NCBI GenBank assembly: GCA_016219765.1
Contig: JACRKM010000028.1
Coordinates: 1 to 11,253, forward strand
Length of the DNA: 11,253 bases
Reading direction: 5' to 3'
Origin: Candidatus Woesearchaeota archaeon
GTDB lineage: Archaea > Nanobdellota > Nanobdellia > Woesearchaeales > UBA11576
Every line of letters begins with the position of its first letter. The stretch's first letter is position 1. Position numbers and translations under genes: made by a program. Shown one piece after another: positions 1,807 to 10,120 of the stretch. The notes beneath the pieces are model-generated. The model saw only the letters and a program-made list of their open reading frames with translations, ran no database searches and had not been told where the DNA came from.

Positions 1807-1844
1807 GGCTCTGTCCCTACTGTGCCGCTGCCACCCAGTGAGTT
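1807..1844 (+). repeat. Dispersed repeat, copy 1 (second copy at 6961-6998)
   Basis: It begins with GGCTCTGTCCC, an 11-mer identical to 6961-6971. The next 27 bases align without gaps and about 20 match; most differences are transitions. It is non-coding in both places, and I do not know what it is. Copy 1 lies between the ATPase module and the first hairpin element. Confidence 0.5.
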
Positions 1845-1863: not shown

Positions 1864-1993
1864 TCGTATTTGTTGGCGGCGCCACCACGACGCTCACCGT
1901 GTAAGTTAAACTGCTTACAGAACCGAGAATCGTGCGAGACTATGCAAGAACTGCAAGCTCGCAGGCCGGCTGCGGCGCTGTTAAATAAATACA
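1864..1993. repeat. Long-hairpin element, copy 1 (downstream of the beta-barrel gene)
   Basis: Positions 1879-1911 match 3178-3210 of copy 2 at 26 of 33 bases. Positions 1956-1981 match 3256-3281 at 23 of 26 bases, including AGCTCGCAGG. The middle is unrelated between the copies. In this copy the outer stem has decayed; only GCGCC (1879-1883) against GGCGC (1974-1978) and a few further pairs remain. The right end reads GTTAAAT (1980-1986), which fits GTTRRRY. This is the weakest of the three copies structurally. Confidence 0.6.
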
Positions 1994-2035
1994 ATTATTA
2001 GAACCGTGGATATTGTGCGGTATTAGGCCAAACTG

Positions 2036-2057
2036 AAAAAAATAATTATTAAAACTA
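2036..2057 (-). terminator. T-rich terminator of the beta-barrel gene
   Basis: On the minus strand, beginning about 15 bases after the stop codon at 2072, the sequence is T-rich and ends in an uninterrupted run of seven T. This fits the oligo-T terminators of archaea. There is no strong GC hairpin. Confidence 0.4.
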
Positions 2058-2071
2058 ATCAAAAGAAATCG

Positions 2072-3121
2072 TTAAAACGAGAATCGCAACCCGGTCATCA
2101 CACGGTATTCATCTACAGAGTGGAATTGTCCTTTTTTTTCCTTCAGGTAGATTTTCTGCGAATCCTGGAAATTAACCATCCATCGGAGCGGTCCGTACAC
2201 ATGAACATCTGCGTCGACTCCCAAAAATGTGCGCTCAGAGTCAACTGTACTATTCGGGTCAAATGCATTCTGGTCAAACGCATTTCCTGCGCGGGCCATG
2301 TACCTTCTGCTGCCAAAATATGGCATCACGGAAAACCAATAGCAGCGATGATCCTCTGAATGCTCTGAGTTTTCAAGTTCGCAATTCTTTGCTGTGCTAT
2401 AAATTACAGGAACACCGGCGAATACATCAAGCGTGGTGAACTTGGTTTTTATCTCTGAACCGCCAGCCAAGGCCAATTCATCCTGCCATCCTAAGCCGAA
2501 CATGACCCGCCAATCAACATGGAAGTCTCCCATTTTTAATGCTTCAAAATTTCCTCGCAGAAGCCATCCATAGTTCACTATTTTATCTGAGCGTTGAACT
2601 TCGCCAAAATCGAACCTCACGTAGCGATCTATCTGACTGACGTACGGACCAAACTCAACAGTGTGGTCTTTCCCAAAAGGAATCACCGCCGTGATGTCTC
2701 CGGCACCCTTGAATTGCTGGTAGTCTCCGATCGTCTTATTCTGATAATCGATAATCCCAGAAAGTGAGACGCTACCACTAATGCGCGAACGCACAAATGC
2801 ACTCCATTGTGGTTTGCGCATCTGGAAATTGACGGCAGCCTCAAGCGCAGAATCCTTCAGTGAAACAACATCATCGTCATTGTTGTAGGCTGTCCGTGTC
2901 TGAGCGACACCCACAGTCAGGCTCTCCACTGGTCGCAAGAAGTCCTCCTTTTTCGGGGGCCGCGAATCTGGGCTGTTTTCAACTCGGGCAGGGTCGCCAG
3001 GATTCGCGAGTGCGGGCAGTGTTGCAGAAGTAGCAAAAACAAACGCGGCAAAAGAAAGTGCCGGCGCGGCTGGCCGCGAGATCTTGCTAAACAGGCTTTT
3101 AGTTGTATCTTCAAGCCTAAT
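2072..3121 (-). CDS. Predicted Sec-exported outer-membrane-type beta-barrel protein
   Basis: From residue about 40 to the end the protein shows repeated 8-12 residue amphipathic strands with tight turns. It has many aromatic residues at strand ends and a final strand, EYRVMTGLRFSF, ending in Phe, as in bacterial outer-membrane barrels. Upstream in the same frame is a classic signal peptide: a basic region (SLFSKISR), a hydrophobic core (LSFAAFVFATSATL) and a likely cleavage site after PALA (residue 39). No ATG, GTG or TTG precedes it in frame. An ATT codon at 3121-3119 lies 8 bp after a perfect AAGGAGG, so I use it (349 aa). A TTG at 3114 is in another frame and would need one extra A in the run near 3098. 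TTG at 2938 would lose the signal. The strong Shine-Dalgarno differs from the leaderless genes nearby and suggests transfer from a bacterium. Specific function is unknown; a pore or adhesin-type surface protein is possible. Confidence 0.65.
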   Translation of the reverse strand: MRLEDTTKSLFSKISRPAAPALSFAAFVFATSATLPALANPGDPARVENSPDSRPPKKEDFLRPVESLTVGVAQTRTAYNNDDDVVSLKDSALEAAVNFQMRKPQWSAFVRSRISGSVSLSGIIDYQNKTIGDYQQFKGAGDITAVIPFGKDHTVEFGPYVSQIDRYVRFDFGEVQRSDKIVNYGWLLRGNFEALKMGDFHVDWRVMFGLGWQDELALAGGSEIKTKFTTLDVFAGVPVIYSTAKNCELENSEHSEDHRCYWFSVMPYFGSRRYMARAGNAFDQNAFDPNSTVDSERTFLGVDADVHVYGPLRWMVNFQDSQKIYLKEKKGQFHSVDEYRVMTGLRFSF

Positions 3122-3129
3122 TTTTGATG

Positions 3130-3136
3130 CCTCCTT
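3130..3136 (-). promoter_or_regulatory. Strong Shine-Dalgarno before the beta-barrel gene
   Basis: On the minus strand AAGGAGG occupies 3136-3130, eight bases before the in-frame ATT at 3121 and fifteen before the out-of-frame TTG at 3114. The spacing favours the ATT as initiator. Confidence 0.5.
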
Positions 3137-3156
3137 ATTTCTGATTTATTTGTATC

Positions 3157-3300
3157 TGTTTAGCTCTTATGCTCACAGCGCCGCCACGACGCTCGCTATG
3201 TATGTGAAAGCGAATGTGCATTCCAAGAGCTGTGGAGACGTATCCATTTTCCATCAGCTCGCAGGTCGGTGGCGGCGCTGTGAGCGCGATTAGCTAAACA
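3157..3300. repeat. Long-hairpin element, copy 2 (upstream of the beta-barrel gene)
   Basis: A perfect 17-bp inverted repeat, GCTCACAGCGCCGCCAC (3171-3187) with its complement at 3269-3285, encloses 81 bases. A second matching pair further out, TGTTTAGCT (3157-3165) and AGCTAAACA (3292-3300), extends the stem over a small mismatched region. Inside the stem are GCTCG on the left and AGCTCGCAGG on the right, both shared with copy 1. The central 60 or so bases are not conserved. No ORF fills the element. It lies directly upstream of the promoter region of the beta-barrel gene. It could be a folded-DNA recombination site, a MITE-like element or a structured RNA. Confidence 0.75.
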
Positions 3301-3426
3301 AAGACATTTATTTGACTAATGCAGGTTACCCCAATAACTCTCATTTCGACTATCGGCGAGTAACGATCGATATTTAAATATTCCTTTCCCGAATTTTACC
3401 GAAATGATTATTAAGATGAAACTCTT
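3301..3426. other. Spacer downstream of the M24 peptidase gene
   Basis: This is a non-coding, AT-rich spacer containing the 12-base palindrome ATATTTAAATAT (3370-3381). On the minus strand it is the 3' flank of the M24 peptidase gene. I see nothing else in it. Confidence 0.4.
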
Positions 3427-4518
3427 TCAGCGCAGAACAAGGAGAGAGCGACTAGACTTCGTGAGCGCTCGCGGGCCTTTTTTTGTCATGACGTAATCAT
3501 CTTCGATGCGAATGCCGAATTTTTCGGGATAGTAGACGCCAGGCTCAATTGTAAAAACAACATCTTGTCCTAATTGTGTAAATGATTTGTTGGTATGGCC
3601 GCGTATAAACGGGTACTCGTGAACGTCGATGCCAAGCCCGTGCCCGATGCTGTGGATGAAGTATTTGCCATGTCTGCCAAGTTTCTGCCGGGCAACCTTC
3701 TCTATGCTTGCAAAGCTGCAGCCAGAGACCGCCGCGTCGCGTGCAGCATCGTGCGCAGAGAGCACTGCCGCGTAAGCAGTTTTATCTTGCTTCGTTGGTT
3801 TTCCGACAAAGGCTGTTCGCGTCATGTCTGCGCAGTATCCCTGATAACGGAGTCCGTAATCAATAATGCAAAATCCTTTGCGCAGTTTTGTCGGTTTTAC
3901 CTCATAATGGGGTTGCGCTCCGGCTGCGCCTGATGCGACGATTGGTCGGAAGCTTGGATCGCATCCGAGGCGCGCAGTCTCTTGCAGCATAAATGCTGCA
4001 ACGTCTGCTTCAGTGCGAAATGAATCAAATGCAGCGAATGTTCTCTGAAAAGTTTTGTCCGTAAGCGCGCAAGCGCGTTGGATTTTCTCTAATTCAGATG
4101 GCGTTTTTCGTAATCGGAGTGTCTGGCAGAGTTCCGCTATGTCAAGAAAGGATGACCGAACCTGTTTGCGAAGCCGTGCCAGCTGCGCGATACTGGTGTG
4201 ATCGTAGTCGAGCCCTGCACGTTTTGCACGCAGCATTCGTCGCGAGAATCGTGCCGCGATCTCTGCTGGAAGCTTCTTTTTCATAACTGCAACAGGCACG
4301 CAGCTTGCGTGTTTTGCTCGTTCGTACTCCATTTGAGCGACAAGAAGCAGTGGTTTGTCGTCGGCAGGAATAACAAGAATTCCTAAACCGTTGTAATTAC
4401 ATAAATGAAAGAAGTTGCCGCTTGAAGCGTGACTATCTATGTTCTGCAACAACGCATAGCGGATGTCGCGCGCTCGCAGCATATCCTGGAATCTGCTTAC
4501 GTTGGAACGAGTTGCCAT
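3427..4518 (-). CDS. M24 family metallopeptidase (Xaa-Pro aminopeptidase/dipeptidase type)
   Basis: This 363-residue protein of the creatinase/aminopeptidase-P fold is expected to remove or split N-terminal Xaa-Pro bonds in the cytoplasm with two metal ions. All five metal ligands are visible: Asp220 (IIDYG), Asp231 (ADMTR), His293 (IGHGLG), Glu325 (TIEPG) and Glu339 (RIEDD). The supporting His204 (PHY) and His300 (VHE) are also present. Residues 1-130 fit the smaller N-terminal creatinase domain, and 363 aa is normal for PepQ/PepP-like enzymes. I chose ATG 4518 because a TATA-like TTAAATAT (minus strand, 4550-4543) is about 28 bp upstream, giving a leaderless mRNA. A longer reading to 4758 would run antisense through the M16 gene and adds no family-like sequence. 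The gene diverges from the M16 gene with 40 bp between starts. Substrate preference cannot be read from the sequence. Confidence 0.9.
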   Translation of the reverse strand: MATRSNVSRFQDMLRARDIRYALLQNIDSHASSGNFFHLCNYNGLGILVIPADDKPLLLVAQMEYERAKHASCVPVAVMKKKLPAEIAARFSRRMLRAKRAGLDYDHTSIAQLARLRKQVRSSFLDIAELCQTLRLRKTPSELEKIQRACALTDKTFQRTFAAFDSFRTEADVAAFMLQETARLGCDPSFRPIVASGAAGAQPHYEVKPTKLRKGFCIIDYGLRYQGYCADMTRTAFVGKPTKQDKTAYAAVLSAHDAARDAAVSGCSFASIEKVARQKLGRHGKYFIHSIGHGLGIDVHEYPFIRGHTNKSFTQLGQDVVFTIEPGVYYPEKFGIRIEDDYVMTKKGPRALTKSSRSLLVLR

Positions 4519-4529
4519 AATGCAAAACA

Positions 4530-4537
4530 TTATAAGG
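4530..4537 (+). promoter_or_regulatory. TATA box for the M16 peptidase gene
   Basis: TTATAAGG is centred about 26 bp before the ATG at 4559, the textbook archaeal spacing for a leaderless transcript. It lies only 12 bp upstream of the divergent peptidase start. Confidence 0.55.
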
Positions 4538-4542
4538 TGTGG

Positions 4543-4550
4543 ATATTTAA
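4543..4550 (-). promoter_or_regulatory. TATA box for the M24 peptidase gene
   Basis: On the minus strand this reads TTAAATAT, centred about 28 bp before the ATG at 4518. The two divergent TATA boxes are 5 bp apart, so TBP is unlikely to occupy both at once. Confidence 0.5.
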
Positions 4551-4558
4551 TTCTTGTC

Positions 4559-5761
4559 ATGCTTGTGCAGAAAAAATTGCCGAATGGCTGTCGGATGGTA
4601 ATTGAGAGGAGGAGTTCTCCCATCGTCTGCGTCCAGATCAGCGTAGGCGTCGGTTCTGACGATGAGAACTTGCGTGTCGCAGGAATATCCCACTTTCTTG
4701 AGCATATGCTTTTTGAGGGCTCTACGACGCGCACGACTAAGGAGATAAGCGAGGCCATCGAGAATGTTGGTGGTGAGCTTAATGCTGCGACTTCTAACGA
4801 GAGAACTTTCTATTACGCGAAGGTGCCGAGAAAGCATTTTGCGATGGCGCTTGAGATTCTTGCAGATGTTGTGTTTAATCCGATCTTCGATCAAAAGATG
4901 ATGGAGAAAGAGCGCAACGTTATACTGGAAGAGATCAAGATGACCGACGATCAGCCTTTGCAATACCAGTGGATACTGTTTGAGAAGACTCTTTGGAAGA
5001 AACTCCCAGCAAAGAATCCTACCTACGGGACTGTGGAGACTGTGAAAGCGATAACGCGAAAAGACATGATTGACTATCATCAGAGATGGTATTCTCCACA
5101 GAATATAATAGTCAGCGTCGTGGGCGACGCGCCTGATGCAGAGCGCGAGATCAAGAGGTGGTTTGATAGGCGCGAATCGACTGCTGTGCCAGAGTTACCG
5201 GAGGTAACAGAACCTGTGGACAATCGCGCGCTTGTTAAGCGAGAGAAGAAAGGTGTACAGCAGGCGTATATGAATTTCGGTTACAAGACGGTGGCAAGAA
5301 GTCATCCTGATAGTGTCGTGCTTGATGTGATAAGCGCGGTTTTCTGCAAGGGTCTCTCTGGAAGGATTGTCGACGAGATCCGCATCAGGCGCGGTCTTGT
5401 GTACTCTGTCGGTTGCACGCATCAATCTCTTGGCAGTTTCGGTTTTTTTGCGGTTTATCTCAATGCTGCGAAGAAGAACATCGAGCCTTGCCGCGGGATA
5501 ATACTTCAGGAGATCGGCAAGCTTTCTACGCTCAGTAAGCGCGAACTTGACGAGGCTAAGGATTTCATCGAGGGGAAGCTGGTGATGTCTGCTGAGGATC
5601 ATCAGCATCGTGCTGATATCCTGGCGTTCTGGGAGTCTGTGAGTTCCGCAAAGGACGCGGAACACTACCTTACCAAGGTAAAGAAAGTTACAAAAGAAGA
5701 CATCCTAAAAGCGGCGAAGAGATATCTCAATAAGAATTACACGATGACGGTTGTGGAATAA
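4559..5761 (+). CDS. M16 family zinc metallopeptidase (processing-peptidase/pitrilysin-like)
   Basis: This 400-residue protein has the inverted zinc motif HFLEH (His45, Glu48, His49) and the distal zinc ligand about 76 residues on, in ILEEIKM (Glu125 most likely). Typical surroundings are present: LPNGCRMV at the N-terminus, VGSDDE, GGELNAATSNERTFYYA (about 71-87) and the second-domain motif RRGLVYSV (277-284), the usual substrate-contact region. The length fits a one-unit M16B peptidase with two homologous domains. The start at 4559 is supported by family alignment and by a TATA box 26 bp upstream; a longer reading from 4463 adds unrelated residues antisense to the M24 gene. M16 enzymes are mainly bacterial and organellar, so presence here may reflect transfer, although the promoter is archaeal in form. 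No signal peptide is evident, so it is probably cytoplasmic. Confidence 0.9.
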   Translation: MLVQKKLPNGCRMVIERRSSPIVCVQISVGVGSDDENLRVAGISHFLEHMLFEGSTTRTTKEISEAIENVGGELNAATSNERTFYYAKVPRKHFAMALEILADVVFNPIFDQKMMEKERNVILEEIKMTDDQPLQYQWILFEKTLWKKLPAKNPTYGTVETVKAITRKDMIDYHQRWYSPQNIIVSVVGDAPDAEREIKRWFDRRESTAVPELPEVTEPVDNRALVKREKKGVQQAYMNFGYKTVARSHPDSVVLDVISAVFCKGLSGRIVDEIRIRRGLVYSVGCTHQSLGSFGFFAVYLNAAKKNIEPCRGIILQEIGKLSTLSKRELDEAKDFIEGKLVMSAEDHQHRADILAFWESVSSAKDAEHYLTKVKKVTKEDILKAAKRYLNKNYTMTVVE

Positions 5762-5796
5762 CGCCTATTACAGTCAAGTTCGCCTTCAAGCCGAGC

Positions 5797-5825
5797 TAAA
5801 TAAAAATACAAATTAAATATAAATC
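5797..5825 (-). terminator. T-rich 3' end of tyrS
   Basis: On the minus strand, after the tyrS stop at 5838, the sequence is rich in T, including TTTAATTTG and TATTTTTATTT. This suits an archaeal oligo-T terminator. It lies in the 76-bp convergent gap with the M16 gene. Confidence 0.35.
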
Positions 5826-5837
5826 AAGCAGAATTGG

Positions 5838-6914
5838 CTAACGTGTAATCTCAAAGCTCTGCACTTGCTCAAACAGCCTTCGCGCCTGCGGATTCTTAGA
5901 AAAATGCTCTCGCACGGGTTTGATGAGTTCATTAGTGTAGTGCGCGACTGCATTCTTAAGATCAAGCGGGTGAAGTTTTCCCGACGTATAGACTTCTTCT
6001 AGTTCAAGGAAGCTCGCAAGTTCCAGTGGTCCGCCGAATTTTTGTGGCCGATCGATCTGGATTGTCTTGAATTTTGGAAATAATAAATGGCAGGCATAGT
6101 CCATAACTGGGTTTTCATGCACAACCTTCTCAGGGCAGTATGCTTTTTTGATTTTATGATTAATTTGTTCTTCATTATCAGTCATGAAAATGGCGGTGTC
6201 GGGAATTGATTTGCTCATCTTGAGCGATATCGCGCGTTCTATCGTGTCTGCATCAGATTTCGGTGGCTCTCCAAGGCCGAATAGCATGTGGTGGTGTACG
6301 CAGACCGGCTTATAATAGCCCAGTTTAGGACCGAGTTCTCGCGCCAGCACATTAACTTTGCGCTGGTCCATGCCTAACTGTGCAATATCAACGCCGAGGT
6401 AAAAGATATCTGCCGCCTGCATGCATGGATACAGGATTTGTGCTGCAGAGAGTTGTTCTGATTCACTGCGTCCCATGATCTGCGAGCATCGTACTATGCG
6501 ATTTACCGTGCTGTTCCTGCTGACTTGCATGACCATCTTCCAGTATGCGTCATCCTTGACGAGATCCGATGCCCAGACAAATTCAACATTATCGAGATCC
6601 ATGCCACATGCTTTCCATACTTCGATGAGATATTTTCCAGTTGTCTGGATTTTCTCAAGATCTCCACCCATCTTGTTGTTTGCCCACCCATGCCAGTCTG
6701 CAACGAGCATCTTGAACTTGGCTCCTGCAGCAGTCATGCGATTGATGTTGATTGCACGCATGATGCCTTGTGCGATATGTGGATTGCCGCTGGGCTCAAA
6801 GCCATCATAGGCAACCGGGTGTTTTTTTGTCTTGAGAAGTTCGTCAAGCTCGTCACGCGTTAGAATCTCTTCGCCTACCTGTTCGATAAGGGCAAGTCTT
6901 TTTTCGTGTTGCAT
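5838..6914 (-). CDS. tyrS: Tyrosyl-tRNA synthetase, archaeal type
   Basis: This class I aminoacyl-tRNA synthetase charges tRNA-Tyr in the cytoplasm. In the 358-residue reading, VAYDGFEPSG (34-43) is followed by the HIGH-box equivalent HIAQ (46-49). Tyrosine-pocket residues have archaeal spacing: Tyr162, Gln166 and Asp169 in LYPCMQAADIFYL. MDQRKVNVLARE (182-193) and the KMSKS loop (232-236) follow. The length matches archaeal and eukaryotic-type enzymes, without the bacterial S4 tail. I chose ATG 6914 over ATG 6938. A TATA-like TTTATATA overlaps the upstream ATG, and the expected start site falls at the second one, whose MQHEKRLALIEQVGEEILT matches the family N-terminus. The longer form would add only MNRGTAIT. 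TyrRS rather than TrpRS is supported by the YDGFEPSG and MDQRK motifs. Confidence 0.93.
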   Translation of the reverse strand: MQHEKRLALIEQVGEEILTRDELDELLKTKKHPVAYDGFEPSGNPHIAQGIMRAININRMTAAGAKFKMLVADWHGWANNKMGGDLEKIQTTGKYLIEVWKACGMDLDNVEFVWASDLVKDDAYWKMVMQVSRNSTVNRIVRCSQIMGRSESEQLSAAQILYPCMQAADIFYLGVDIAQLGMDQRKVNVLARELGPKLGYYKPVCVHHHMLFGLGEPPKSDADTIERAISLKMSKSIPDTAIFMTDNEEQINHKIKKAYCPEKVVHENPVMDYACHLLFPKFKTIQIDRPQKFGGPLELASFLELEEVYTSGKLHPLDLKNAVAHYTNELIKPVREHFSKNPQARRLFEQVQSFEITR

Positions 6915-6937
6915 TGTTATGGCGGTGCCACGGTTCA

Positions 6938-6946
6938 TATATAAAG
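6938..6946 (-). promoter_or_regulatory. TATA box for tyrS
   Basis: On the minus strand CTTTATATA ends at the first possible ATG (6938) and is centred about 28 bp before ATG 6914. An ATG touching the TATA box cannot be in the transcript, so the box decides the start. Confidence 0.6.
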
Positions 6947-6960
6947 TTTATGAGGTGGGC

Positions 6961-6998
6961 GGCTCTGTCCCGAATGTACCACTGCAACCCTGCGAGTT
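6961..6998 (+). repeat. Dispersed repeat, copy 2 (first copy at 1807-1844)
   Basis: Identical to copy 1 over GGCTCTGTCCC, then similar over the next 27 bases, about 31 of 38 in all with no gap. It lies in the tyrS/PRC-barrel intergenic region, just upstream of the tyrS promoter. It is followed by a further TGTCCCTA-type segment at about 7036-7043. It is not a tRNA that I can fold. Function unknown. Confidence 0.5.
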
Positions 6999-7081
6999 AG
7001 GGGAACCTTCTTTAAACAGACGGAAGGCCTAAAAATGTCCCTACCAGTGAGTGTTCCCATTCGAAGAAAAAAATACAAAGG

Positions 7082-7089
7082 TTTATATA
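7082..7089 (+). promoter_or_regulatory. TATA box for the PRC-barrel gene
   Basis: TTTATATA here would place the transcription start near 7111, giving a leader of about 98 bases before the PRC-barrel ATG. This contrasts with the leaderless genes around it. Confidence 0.45.
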
Positions 7090-7180
7090 TGATTGCCTCT
7101 CTTGGTGCGTCAATAAAAGTTAGTTTTACCTCGGATTATTTGGTTCATCGCTGGTAACCCGATGGCAAAAAGAGGGTGAC

Positions 7181-7216
7181 ATGAAAAAAAGGTTAGAGGG
7201 GTTGTACTATGGCTGA
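7181..7216 (+). CDS. Possible 11-codon upstream ORF overlapping the PRC-barrel start
   Basis: ATG follows a good archaeal ribosome-binding sequence, GGTGA (7175-7179), at one base spacing. It encodes MKKRLEGLYYG and stops at 7214-7216, overlapping the PRC-barrel ATG at 7209 in another frame. The overlap would suit translational coupling or a leader peptide. The spacing is very short and the peptide may be chance. Confidence 0.2.
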   Translation: MKKRLEGLYYG

Positions 7217-7472
7217 CGATGACAAGCGATTTGCACGCGAACTCATTGGGAAGACTGTTGTTTCTAAAACGGGCAAGAAATTTGGTGAAGTCGGCGATAT
7301 AGTTTTTGAAGTGAAGTCTGGCGAACTCATCCACCTGGTCCTTGTGAAGCCGACGGCTTACACAGAAAAACTTGAACTGGAAAAGGATAAATCCGGCAAC
7401 ATCTTAATCCCGTATTCTTCGCTAATCGCAATTGGAGACTTCATGGTAATCGCGGAAGAAGACATTATTTGA
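7209..7472 (+). CDS. PRC-barrel domain protein
   Basis: This 87-residue protein consists almost entirely of one PRC-barrel. The signature is visible: ARELIGKTVVSKTGKKFGEV (residues 9-28), then GDIVFEVKSGELIHLVL and the closing strand IPYSSLIAIGDFMVIAEE. Stand-alone PRC-barrel proteins are common in archaea. The domain is known from RimM and photosynthetic reaction centre H subunits. Proposed roles include RNA binding and, in some archaea, cell division; the role here is not determined. GAGGGG (7196-7201) lies 7 bases before the ATG. The gene is monocistronic, with its own TATA box and a leader containing a possible upstream ORF. A T-rich stretch follows the stop. Confidence 0.88.
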   Translation: MADDDKRFARELIGKTVVSKTGKKFGEVGDIVFEVKSGELIHLVLVKPTAYTEKLELEKDKSGNILIPYSSLIAIGDFMVIAEEDII

Positions 7473-7500
7473 AATTATTTCATTTTCTCCTTTCTTTCGT
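7473..7500 (+). terminator. T-rich 3' end of the PRC-barrel gene
   Basis: Directly after the TGA the sequence is pyrimidine and T-rich (TTATTTCATTTTCTCC and TTTCTTTCG). This fits an archaeal oligo-T terminator without a hairpin. Confidence 0.35.
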
Positions 7501-7540
7501 TAGTTCGTGTCTCCGGGATTTCTTAATATACGTTATTGAA

Positions 7541-7588
7541 AAGGGTGCTCTCTGGTGCACGGCACCACTCCGGCGTGCTGCGCACACC
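7541..7588. other. GC-rich hairpin-prone stretch next to hairpin element 3
   Basis: It contains the tight hairpin GGTGC-acg-GCACC (7553-7565), and further out GGTG (about 7545) could pair with CACC (about 7585). It may be part of the same folded element, because GCGCACAC at about 7580 partly mirrors GTGTGAGC after the right arm. I see no gene. Outside it and element 3, the 7473-7801 intergenic region shows only the T-rich stretch after the PRC-barrel gene and the rfcS TATA box. Confidence 0.35.
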
Positions 7589-7594
7589 TTCGTT

Positions 7595-7726
7595 CGTTCA
7601 ACACCGCTGCCGGCTCGTGATGTGGTATTCTTTTTCCGCAGGTCGACATTCCCCGATGGGGCATCCCCCTTGTCGACATCGAAGCAAGATCCGCTATCTC
7701 TCGCAACAGGGCAGCGGTGTTGAACG
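7595..7726. repeat. Long-hairpin element, copy 3 (upstream of rfcS)
   Basis: A perfect 17-bp inverted repeat, CGTTCAACACCGCTGCC (7595-7611) with its complement at 7710-7726, encloses 98 bases. Nested inside are GTCGACA (7642-7648) with TGTCGAC (7671-7677) and the tight hairpin CCCC-GAT-GGGG (7651-7661). Aligned to copy 2 (stem CAGCGCCGCCAC), this stem reads CAACACCGCTGC. It differs at four positions, and each change is matched on the other arm, so pairing is kept. GCTCG next to the left stem and CTCGCA (7700-7705) near the right stem match the other copies. The outermost bases are GTTCAAC and GTTGAAC. The element fills most of the PRC-barrel/rfcS intergenic region. Confidence 0.7.
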
Positions 7727-7770
7727 TGCCTGTACGTGTGAGCTTTTCAATAACGCCTCTTAATAGCAAC

Positions 7771-8863: not shown

Positions 8864-9310
8864 ATGGCAAATCCTCTGATTCTAGATGAACTGAAAAAAA
8901 AAAGTCAGGAGATGCTTACGCTCCAGCACGATCTTACGAATCGGCTTTCTCAGAGCCAGCAGATTATTGCGGATTTCTCGCTAGAGCTTGAACAACTCAA
9001 AGAAGAGATTACCTCAAAGGAAGGCACAGAGCGTCTGTTGCCGGGGTACCTTGGAACCTTGCAGTCGGCGCTGGTTGAAAAACAAGAATTGATCAAAAAC
9101 CTGATTGATGATGTCACAGCATTAAGAAATGTAATCGATAAAAAAGACGAGCACCTGCGTGAACTGAAACAAAAACTCACAGAGCAGATCACCACAGCAA
9201 CAGAAAATGAAGCGAAGGCCGTTGAGAAGCAAGGATTGGTCAAAAACCTGATTGACGACGTTACAGCATTAAGAAATGTGGTCGATAAGAAGGACGAGCA
9301 CCTGCGTTAA
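8864..9310 (+). CDS. Coiled-coil protein, N-terminal part, ended by an in-frame TAA
   Basis: ATG 8864 follows GGTGA (8857-8861) and begins a 148-residue reading that is almost entirely helical coiled coil, rich in Glu, Lys, Gln and Leu. It contains one full 49-residue repeat (residues 71-119) and most of a second. The TAA at 9308-9310 stands where the first repeat has GAA (9161-9163). Beyond it the same frame stays open to 10120 and continues the coiled coil without a break. I therefore read this as the front of a 418-codon gene interrupted at codon 149, by mutation, sequencing error or readthrough. TAA also ends the M16 gene, so a recoded genetic code is unlikely. The gene follows rfcS by 57 bp. 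Coiled-coil content alone does not reveal function; a structural or chromosome-associated role is only a guess. Confidence 0.7.
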   Translation: MANPLILDELKKKSQEMLTLQHDLTNRLSQSQQIIADFSLELEQLKEEITSKEGTERLLPGYLGTLQSALVEKQELIKNLIDDVTALRNVIDKKDEHLRELKQKLTEQITTATENEAKAVEKQGLVKNLIDDVTALRNVVDKKDEHLR

Positions 9311-9367
9311 CTGAAACAAAAACTCACAGAGCAAATCACCACAGCAACAGAAAATGAAGCGAAGGCT
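9074..9367 (+). repeat. 147-bp tandem duplication within the coiled-coil gene
   Basis: Two in-frame copies, 9074-9220 and 9221-9367, each encode 49 residues centred on KNLIDDVTALRN and DKKDEHLR. I count about 10 synonymous changes, three amino-acid changes (Glu to Gly and two Ile to Val) and one nonsense change between copies. The excess of silent changes shows that both copies were kept as coding sequence for some time after duplication. Confidence 0.85.
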
Positions 9368-9409: not shown

Positions 9410-10120
9410 GTGCGATTGAAGAATGACATCGCCATCTTTGATTCAAGGTTTAGCGAAAGCAATGCACAAAACAAGAAGCTTGCTGCAGATTTGCTGCAAA
9501 CGAAAGACGAACTGCAGCGCACCACTGCCGAAGTGAACACTGTGCGTGCCGCGCTTGTAGAACAGCAGCAGAATATGAAAAGTGCGATCGAGAAGCTGGC
9601 TGGGGAGCACGAGAGTGCAACGAAGAGGATAGTGAACGAGGGCATTCGGCGCAATCTTGCGCTCGCGACAGAAGTGAAGCAGTTGCGCGACATGGTTGGT
9701 GCGCAGCGCAGGGTCATTGATCTTAAAGAGAAGAAAGAGACTGAGCTTGCACAGGAAACGGTGAGCAGGGTAAAGGAACTGCTCTCGGTCAAGGAAAGCG
9801 CATCATCGCAGACAAGCGAAGCTGCACTCCGGGGAGTTTCTCCAATGCCATCGCGGTCGTCATTGCAGCCAGAATACGCGCGGGAGGCATACGTTGAGGA
9901 GGAAGAGGATCTTCTTGAGAGCTTGCGGACGCTCGTTGGAAGCGATAATTACGAACAGAGCGCCAGCATTCCACAATTGAGTGACTTGTGTCCAATGATC
10001 GAGACTGCATTCGACCATGGAGATACGAAAGATAAGATTATTCGGTCGTTGCGCAGTTGTGGTTATGCGCTGTCAGACATTGACGAGGCGTTCAGAAAGC
10101 TTGGACGTTGGACTGATTAG
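9410..10120 (+). CDS. Coiled-coil protein, C-terminal part, with terminal helical domain
   Basis: This is the same frame as the upstream piece (open from 9311). It could be translated separately from GTG 9410 or TTG 9416, since AAGGAG at 9401-9406 could serve as a ribosome-binding site. The first 130 or so residues continue the coiled coil (for example EVKQLRDMVGAQRRVIDLKE). A Ser/Pro-rich and then acidic linker (VEEEEDLLE) follows. The last 45 residues form a separate helical unit with the pattern DLCPMIETAF, GDTKDKIIRSLRSCGYALSDIDEAFRKL. It resembles a UBA-like helical tail that I associate with DPANN archaeal proteins of otherwise different content; that is recollection, not a search result. 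The intact gene would be 8864-10120. It converges on the lipoprotein gene with 39 bp between stops. Confidence 0.65.
   Translation: MRLKNDIAIFDSRFSESNAQNKKLAADLLQTKDELQRTTAEVNTVRAALVEQQQNMKSAIEKLAGEHESATKRIVNEGIRRNLALATEVKQLRDMVGAQRRVIDLKEKKETELAQETVSRVKELLSVKESASSQTSEAALRGVSPMPSRSSLQPEYAREAYVEEEEDLLESLRTLVGSDNYEQSASIPQLSDLCPMIETAFDHGDTKDKIIRSLRSCGYALSDIDEAFRKLGRWTD

What the first reader, a model, noticed from the sequence alone, without database searches (positions are those of the whole stretch)
1864..7726. Family of three long-hairpin elements with compensatory stem changes
Intergenic elements at 1864-1993, 3157-3300 and 7595-7726 share one plan: an outer stem, GCTCG just inside the left arm, CTCGCA just inside the right arm, and a variable centre. 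Copies 2 and 3 have perfect 17-bp stems. Their stem cores, CAGCGCCGCCAC and CAACACCGCTGC, differ at four positions, each compensated on the opposite arm. Related elements keeping pairing while changing sequence indicates selection on a fold, either of single-stranded DNA or of RNA. None of the three contains a gene. I know of no named archaeal element of this form.
Basis: seen in the sequence. Interest (0 to 1): 0.82.

Follow-up and report, generated by a model that had tools for sequence, protein, structure and literature searches.

The report
Mobile hairpins capped by triple helix
The three hairpins are copies of small hitch-hiking transposons that litter the genomes of Woesearchaeota (tiny, mostly uncultured archaea), and one of them carries a folded core, apparently a hairpin closed by a three-stranded helix, that has been kept across many genera although the transposon ends around it keep changing.

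Summary
The hairpins are real and belong to large families. All three are MITE-like. Copy 2 (3152-3305) and copy 3 (7529-7757) have terminal inverted repeats and exact 8-bp target duplications; copy 1 (1866-1992) is a decayed relative of copy 2. The nearest relative has an empty site where copy 3 sits. At least 25 elements of copy 2's family and 40 sites with copy 3's core were read in this 1.09-Mb genome. A model of copy 3's apex hits 119 of 352 genomes of the order, often in many copies. The core sits between many different terminal repeats with 8- or 9-bp duplications; one type is shared with full-length IS5-like insertion sequences in two other genera. The stronger evidence is the apex: a pyrimidine run, a purine run and a second pyrimidine run change together (C-G.C to U-A.U) at two positions, weakly at a third, only in the register of a parallel triple helix. 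Wobble pairs suggest that the + strand folds. Whether it works as RNA or single-stranded DNA, and what it does, is not shown. My searches found no description.

The parts
1866..1992 (+). Copy 1: diverged family-A element; end remnants GTATTTGTT...AATAAATAC, inner motif GCTCA...CTCGCA
   Evidence: Sequence; pieces match family-A copies, e.g. 71% over 103 nt to C107 and 81% over 32 nt to copy 2; no target duplication recognised; fold z -4.0 on the + strand
3144..3151 (+). Left 8-bp target duplication of copy 2 (ATTTATTT)
3152..3305 (+). Copy 2: family-A MITE, 154 bp, inverted ends GTATCTGTTTAGC/GCTAAACAAAGAC (family consensus GTATTTGTTTAGC)
   Evidence: 26 full rows extracted from own genome, 25 loci since L039 counts twice; exact 8-bp duplication in 20 of 26 rows
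3171..3285 (+). Copy 2 perfect 17-bp stem (3171-3187/3269-3285) enclosing GCTCG and CTCGCA motifs
   Evidence: I5
3306..3313 (+). Right 8-bp target duplication of copy 2 (ATTTATTT)
7521..7528 (+). Left 8-bp target duplication of copy 3 (TCTTAATA)
7529..7757 (+). Copy 3: 229-bp MITE, inverted ends TACGTTATTGAAAA/TTTTCAATAACGCC, structured core
   Evidence: absent from the same gap in the congener G001
7595..7611 (+). Copy 3 stem P3, left arm (right arm 7710-7726)
   Evidence: I9; stem covaries over 33 elements
7612..7709 (+). Inner part: conserved, not regularly paired motifs GGCTCGTGAT...ATCTCTCGC either side of the apical domain
   Evidence: invariant and nearly invariant columns
7642..7677 (+). 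Apical domain P5: stem GTCGACA/TGTCGAC; y run 7650-7653 (TCCC), purine run 7658-7661 (GGGG), third-strand run 7667-7670 (CCCT): proposed parallel pyrimidine triple helix
   Evidence: coordinates; three-way covariation; model R1 hits 119 of 352 genomes
7710..7726 (+). Copy 3 stem P3, right arm
   Evidence: I9
7758..7765 (+). Right 8-bp target duplication of copy 3 (TCTTAATA)

Best explanation
The hairpins are non-autonomous DNA transposons (MITEs) moved in trans by transposases that recognise their terminal inverted repeats and duplicate 8 or 9 bp of target. Shown: ends, duplications, one empty site, and full-length IS5-like elements with one of the superfamily's end types in two other genera. 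Copy 3 belongs to a superfamily with a conserved core whose + strand folds into a long hairpin: variable base-paired stems, an internal loop with conserved GCUCG/CUCGC sides, and an apical hairpin in which a pyrimidine run downstream lies along the purine strand as a short parallel triple helix. Shown: covariation of stems and of the three runs. Inferred: the triple helix itself. The core persists across many end types, so it is probably under selection in its own right (inferred). My most likely mechanism is that it works as a strand-specific folded single strand, more probably a small RNA or RNA domain than single-stranded DNA, that helps the element persist. The RNA step and the purpose are inference.
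For: Ends and target duplications: 20 of 26 family-A rows have an exact 8-bp duplication at the expected edge, two more a shifted one; 57 of 98 apex loci and 58 of 106 loci have 12-nt inverted ends with a 7-10-bp duplication, 113 distinct elements, against 0 of 82 control positions away from the apex, same criteria stopping at the first fit. Empty site of copy 3 in the congener, whose flanks match at 85-87%. Full-length transposons with the GGCTCTGTAGAAA end type: L167 (1076 bp, 315-aa ORF, exact 8-bp duplication) and L162 (883 bp, 270-aa ORF, one end GGCTCAGTAGAAA, no duplication seen); both ORFs best match NF033579 IS5 family, 139.1 and 120.4 bits against a cut-off of 140. Fold. Three-way covariation on 93 of 112 distinct P5 strings: y2/r3/z5 Fisher 3e-14 (y2-r3), 4e-10 (y2-z5), 7e-11 (r3-z5); y3/r2/z4 1e-7, 4e-7 (y3-z4), 2e-6 (r2-z4); y1-z6 3e-4; off-register pairs r3-z4 and r2-z5 both P 0.59. 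Model R1, which supplied most loci, leaves the z run unpaired, so its coupling was not imposed by the search. Spread: 119 of 352 genomes of the order. Strand: at the pair next to the triple helix G.U 24 against A.C 1.
Against: No match to the two transposase families tried (PF13610, PF01609) in this genome's assembly, and no full-length element found for the end types of copies 1-3. Duplication lengths differ: L167 has 8 bp, 23 of 27 GGCTCTGTAGAA-type elements have 9. 41 of 98 and 48 of 106 apex loci gave no ends with duplication, some because contigs end there. Stem P3 shows almost no G.U (3 G.U, 7 A.C over 33 sequences), and outside the pair beside the triple helix the apical stem has G.U 11 against A.C 10 (o4 left out), unlike typical RNA. 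In the apex, two covariation measures do not beat shuffles: pairs with a change on both sides (126/500 and 122/500 shuffles reach it) and further pair types (500/500 and 499/500). No orientation bias to flanking genes (14 both +, 15 both - of 55 scored). C+.G-C triples need protonation; the complementary strand could form an antiparallel purine triple with the same exchanges. The short family-A copies in the window (1, 2) lack the triple-helix apex. Some strings break the triple (at y2/r3/z5: TGC 2, CGT 2, TAC 1, CAC 1 and five single others; at y3/r2/z4: CGT 3, CTC 1, CAC 1). Fisher tests treat sequences as independent, which they are not.
Confidence: 0.68

Rival explanations
1. The selected fold is single-stranded or cruciform DNA (for instance on the lagging strand or as an extruded hairpin) that helps transposition or replication of the element; RNA plays no part.
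For: Very few G.U pairs in the long stem P3; no orientation bias to genes; elements are DNA transposons; homopyrimidine mirror runs are the classical H-DNA sequence type (recalled).
Against: One strand is favoured at two places (G.U 24 against A.C 1 at the pair beside the triple helix; U.G at y1-r4 in 49 of 101 distinct strings), whereas replication exposes both strands; several different terminal-repeat types share the core, so it is not a site for one transposase.
Confidence: 0.35
2. There is no selection on a fold: the elements are long palindromes whose arms copy-correct each other by template switching or gene conversion, giving apparent compensatory changes.
For: P3 and the inverted ends pair almost perfectly with transversion-type double changes and few intermediates; one copy has its centre inverted relative to its ends (L039), so arms do interact.
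Against: Well conserved positions include ones not in the consensus stems (GCTCGTGA, CTCTCGC). The third run z is a mirror image of y, not its complement, and arm copying should not couple them. Against other families BLASTN matches shrink to the apex, yet the apex is found in 119 of 352 genomes.
Confidence: 0.12
3. The elements serve the host as bidirectional transcription terminators or promoter-proximal regulators, and mobility is secondary.
For: Many lie between genes, by eye often just upstream of TATA-like stretches (sequences); 16 of 38 scored loci in other genomes lie between divergent genes, 1 of 17 in the own genome.
Against: No orientation preference (both + 14, both - 15 of 55 scored); divergent spacing is not where terminators belong; the congener keeps the same two neighbouring genes without copy 3.
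Confidence: 0.15
4. They are integron attC-like recombination sites folded from one DNA strand.
For: Same principle of variable paired arms with conserved unpaired bases; copy 3's arms happen to contain GTTCAAC and GTTGAAC.
Against: Those boxes are not kept in the family (alignment); elements are bounded by inverted repeats with target duplications, which attC sites are not (recalled).
Confidence: 0.03

Closest known systems
MITEs of bacteria and archaea (review PMC10969869, passages read)
   Same: Short, no gene recognised, inverted ends, target duplications, many copies, transcripts predicted to fold
   Different: A core conserved in sequence and structure, shared between different terminal repeats across an order, with three-way covariation; GC-rich core rather than AT-rich; Woesearchaeota do not appear in the passages seen
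IS5-family insertion sequences (NCBIfam NF033579)
   Same: Full-length copies in two other genera share the GGCTCTGTAGAAA-type ends of one subset of the elements
   Different: They carry a transposase and no room for the core; scores are just under the curated cut-off; ends of copies 1-3 are not this type
ENE/dsENE triple helices in transposable-element RNAs of plants and fungi (recalled; one search listed only a meeting report)
   Same: Triple helix in RNA of mobile elements
   Different: Those clamp a poly(A) tract with U-rich loops; here the three runs lie in one compact hairpin and are mostly C-G.C
H-DNA (mirror-repeat intramolecular triplex) (recalled)
   Same: Pyrimidine mirror runs and a purine run forming Y.R-Y triples
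   Different: H-DNA forms from duplex DNA; here all three runs lie on one strand inside a hairpin and covary across species
Integron attC sites (recalled)
   Same: Variable arms that keep pairing, conserved unpaired bases, one strand functional
   Different: No integrase boxes kept; terminal repeats and target duplications instead

Membership tests
MITE | Terminal inverted repeats | tested here: met
   113 distinct elements with 12-nt inverted ends and duplications, out of 98 + 106 loci tried; control 0 of 82
MITE | Target-site duplication | tested here: met
   Copies 2 and 3 exact 8 bp; copy 1 none recognised; 8 bp for GGCGTTATTGAA (8 of 8), GTATTTGTTTAG-like (8 of 8) and GTACGTGGAAAG (2 of 2) ends, 9 bp for 23 of 27 GGCTCTGTAGAA ends
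MITE | Small, no transposase gene, many copies | tested here: met
   About 120-398 bp, too short for a transposase; copy counts
MITE | Ends shared with an autonomous element | tested here: inconclusive
   Met for GGCTCTGTAGAAA-type ends in G275 and G055; not found for the ends of copies 1-3; no PF13610 or PF01609 match in own genome
MITE | Evidence of movement (empty site) | tested here: met
   Copy 3 absent from the orthologous gap in G001; copy 2 not testable, synteny ends there; one site only
Structured RNA family | Covariation beyond chance | tested here: met
   no phylogeny-corrected test was run, and two of five measures do not exceed shuffles
Structured RNA family | Transcription | not testable with these tools
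   No RNA data available
Known Rfam family | Match to one of 4227 models | tested here: not met
   Window; 20 loci with copies (only an RNase P beside one copy and a weak miRNA-model hit)
Triple helix, parallel pyrimidine motif | C-G.C to U-A.U exchange in one register | tested here: met
   the same exchanges also allow a purine-motif triple on the other strand
Integron attC site | Conserved RYYYAAC/GTTRRRY boxes | tested here: not met
   Not kept in alignment
Integron attC site | Cassette array beside an integrase | not tested
   No search for an integrase was run
REP/BIME palindromes (definition recalled) | Short palindromes without target duplications | tested here: not met
   Target duplications present

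The most novel reading that the evidence does not exclude
A new class of structured noncoding RNA, built round a hairpin with an intramolecular triple helix, that spreads through Woesearchaeota as the common cargo of several different DNA-transposon end systems: a core that changes its vehicles.
Probability: 0.35. Interest if true: 0.9.

Novelty: new variant of a known kind. Interest (0 to 1): 0.78.

Why it matters
MITEs are usually treated as leftovers of insertion sequences with nothing inside that matters. Here the inside holds the best conserved part, found in 88 of 220 sampled genera of one archaeal order, while the ends differ. That asks what a transposon-borne fold does for its carrier, in archaea with small genomes where little is known of noncoding RNA or transposition. 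The proposed triple helix rests on natural three-way exchanges and can be tested on a 36-nt oligonucleotide.

Tried and rejected
Rejected: Rfam families (none over the elements); tRNA or tmRNA in the window; integron attC; an untranslated-region role with fixed orientation; IS6-type mobilisation, suggested by the GGCTCTGT end, because no PF13610 was found in own genome and the two full-length elements are IS5-like. An antiparallel r-z hairpin instead of a triple helix: it cannot pair GGAG with CCCCUUU in the variant GACATTTCCCGTAAGGAGCATCCCCTTTGTC. Viral contigs hold none of three exact patterns. Copy 2 empty site: synteny with G001 stops at window 3389, so nothing can be said. No full-length element between exact GTATTTGTTTAGCT ends among the sites listed (the list was cut by the tool). 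(371 genomes of the phylum, E 0.001): all 51 genomes with a match are own, same family or same order; how many of the 371 lie outside the order was not stated.

Dropped rows. One search used 93 of 112 distinct P5 strings: 15 fell out by length (not 30 or 31 nt) and 4 by hand (two strings that are not P5, from L167 and L002, and two misregistered ones from L230 and L080). One search's triple counts (101 strings) still include those; one of its six y3/r2/z4 TAT strings is the L167 chance match, so five remain. The collecting pattern allowed only pyrimidine or purine classes at some of these positions with up to 4 errors, which favours Y and R but not the C-G.C/U-A.U coupling. The G.U/A.C tally quoted leaves out column o4, which is not a conserved pair; with it the script total is G.U 81, A.C 19. 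One search scored 55 of 98 loci; 19 were set aside because a spurious or real ORF spans the apex, the rest for lack of a neighbour within 700 bp. In one search the threshold E 0.01 is per genome, so about 3 to 4 of the 119 may be chance.
Full report
WHAT WAS CHECKED. The window is one whole contig (C151, 11,253 bp) of a 1.09-Mb, 178-contig archaeal genome, 81% complete. Its nearest held relative, G001, is very probably the Woesearchaeota MAG NC_groundwater_1524_Pr4_B-0.1um_47_4 (JACQXV01): several contig lengths agree, for example 28,199 and 54,649 bases. The three hairpins are present as described, with small corrections given under the observation check. Genes around them are ordinary: M24 and M16 peptidases, a class I tRNA synthetase (W/Y type), a PRC-barrel protein, a replication factor C subunit.

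THEY ARE COPIES OF LARGE FAMILIES. BLASTN with copy 2 gives about two dozen long matches in its own genome, plus more that match only at the two ends. From loci fetched round them I extracted 26 full rows of 145-389 bp, of which one locus (L039) appears twice because its centre is inverted relative to its ends, so 25 loci. All end in or near GTATTTGTTTAGC...GCTAAACAAATAC; 20 of the 26 rows show an exact 8-bp duplication at the expected edge, two a shifted one, four none. Copy 3 belongs to a second set: 40 distinct sites with its apical core were read in own-genome loci, a few cut by contig ends. They share a core but not their ends.

THEY ARE MOBILE. An automatic search for 12-nt inverted ends flanked by 7-10-bp duplications succeeded at 57 of 98 apex loci and at 58 of 106 later ones, 113 distinct elements together; the same criteria, stopping at the first fit, gave 0 of 82 at positions away from the apex. 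Duplication length follows the type of end: 8 bp for GGCGTTATTGAA (8 of 8), GTATTTGTTTAG-like (8 of 8) and GTACGTGGAAAG (2 of 2), 9 bp for GGCTCTGTAGAA (23 of 27) and GGCTCTGTCCTA (7 of 7). The commonest size in this sample is 160-169 bp (51 of 113). In the congener G001 the replication factor C gene (91% identical) has an upstream gap that aligns with the window on both sides of copy 3 and lacks the element. Searching 16 genomes for DDE_Tnp_1 transposases (matches in 7, none in the own genome) gave full-length insertion sequences bounded by GGCTCTGTAGAAA-type ends: L167 (1076 bp, 315-aa ORF, exact 8-bp duplication) and L162 (883 bp, 270-aa ORF, no duplication seen). Both proteins best match the IS5 family, below the curated cut-off. 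So for one end type a plausible mover exists in other genera. For the ends of the three window copies none was found, and the own assembly holds no match to PF01609 or PF13610; repeats appear to break this assembly, so absence is weak evidence.

ONE CORE, MANY ENDS. In the own genome the core is found between four end types with both ends verified, including the family-A end (L062), and beside a fifth, GTACGTGG, at copies clipped by contig ends or by the stretch read (verified with duplications in L091 and L092 of the congener). Mosaics exist: L192 has a GGCGTTATTGAAAA left end and a GTACGTGG right end. The core is therefore not simply the inside of one transposon family.

THE FOLD. In 33 own-genome elements RNAalifold gives 31 pairs, 15 with changes on both sides. 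Pairs in the long stem P3 are almost always Watson-Crick, with G.U in 3 and A.C/C.A in 7 cells of the listed pairs. Motifs on either side of the internal loop, GCTCGTGA and CTCTCGC, are nearly invariant though not regularly paired. A model of the apical hairpin (R1, 41 sequences) finds 119 of 352 genomes of the order and 88 of 220 genera at E 0.01 or better, up to the scoring limit of 18 per genome; E is per genome, so three or four may be chance. On 52 distinct rows 98.9% of cells pair; no shuffle of 500 reaches the covariation score or the number of doubly changed cells, though 122 reach the number of doubly changed pairs and 499 the number of pair types; slid controls fall to 30-51% paired.

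THE TRIPLE HELIX. The apex reads GACAU-y1y2y3y4-loop-r1r2r3r4-CNN-z1...z6-UGUC. The y and r runs pair. The third run z changes with them. Over 93 of 112 distinct strings mutual information stands out at y2-r3 0.65, r3-z5 0.39, y2-z5 0.36, y3-r2 0.26, y3-z4 0.24, r2-z4 0.20 and y1-z6 0.16 bits; all other combinations are 0.10 or less. C-G.C becomes U-A.U at y2/r3/z5 in 11 distinct strings and at y3/r2/z4 in 5. By my reading these come from nine genomes in five families each, and several of those genomes also hold the ordinary form. Off-register pairs show nothing (r3-z4 and r2-z5, P 0.59). This is the register of a third strand running parallel to the purine run, with isosteric triples. A competing r-z hairpin would need antiparallel complementarity, which the y2 variant lacks. 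Mirror coupling of y and z is not expected from copying of palindrome arms. The P values treat sequences as independent, which they are not; the within-genome contrasts and the number of families make pure inheritance unlikely, but a phylogeny-corrected test was not run.

WHICH STRAND, RNA OR DNA. At the pair beside the triple helix G.U occurs 24 times and A.C once, and y1-r4 is U.G in 49 and U-A in 33 of 101 distinct strings, so the + strand is the better folder there. Elsewhere in the apical stem G.U and A.C are equal (11 and 10, o4 left out). On the complementary strand the same exchanges would fit an antiparallel purine triple, so covariation alone does not settle the strand. The elements show no preference for orientation with respect to neighbouring genes (55 of 98 loci scored: 14 both +, 15 both -, 17 divergent, 9 convergent; simple ORF calls). 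A strand-specific fold without orientation bias fits a small RNA or a specifically exposed DNA strand better than an untranslated-region element. I lean to RNA, weakly.

COMPARISON WITH WHAT IS KNOWN. By ends, size and copy number they are MITEs. A 2024 review lists archaeal MITEs in Sulfolobus, Halobacterium, Haloquadratum and others and notes folded transcripts (PMC10969869, passages read). Searches of the held library returned no paper that its listing shows to be on such elements: Woesearchaeota + MITE, archaea + MITEs + stem-loop, DPANN + noncoding RNA + structured RNA, Woesearchaeota + transposon + inverted repeats, archaea + mirror repeat + triplex + transposable, Woesearchaeales + repeats + non-coding RNA. 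Rfam has no match over the elements. Most subscription literature is not in that library.

LIMITS. Genomes are mostly metagenome assemblies; copy numbers are lower bounds. Terminal-repeat detection failed at 41 of 98 and 48 of 106 loci, in part where contigs end or ends have decayed. The function of the core is not shown.

Noticed in passing
window 1807-1844 and 6961-6998: An 82%-identical 38-bp repeat GGCTCTGTCCC...CCACC; related pieces lie in nine places among fetched loci, these two included, several beside other mobile elements: probably single ends of another mobile family.
   Followed up: partly
window 9074-9367: A 147-bp tandem duplication (90% identical) in a gene without Pfam match; the second copy brings a stop at 9308-9310, splitting the reading frame into 8864-9310 and 9410-10120.
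   Followed up: no
L039 (own C17), about 833-1062: A family-A element whose centre is inverted relative to its ends, as if the stem arms had recombined.
   Followed up: no
L059 (own C113) about 1607-1980; L035 (own C133): Family-A elements inserted into the end of a GGCTCTGTAGAAA-type element at the same 8-bp target AGATTTTC: nested insertion.
   Followed up: partly
L192 (G001:C142): Hybrid element with two different terminal repeats on its two sides, suggesting recombination within the shared core.
   Followed up: no
L041, L042, L045 (own C132, C82, C32): Longer family-A elements (306-389 bp) hold nested hairpins with GACATCCCTGAGGGAACCCTGTC-like apices, the same y-r-z design in shorter form.
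   Followed up: partly
L032, L033, L046, L088, L030, L061, L082, L120: Some elements carry extra modules of small perfect hairpins (such as AAGGGA...TCCCTT or GGCAGGCATGAAGCCTGCC) inserted at loops of either family.
   Followed up: no
L115 1611-1939 (minus): Archaeal RNase P RNA (103 bits) beside a triple-helix element in G008.
   Followed up: no
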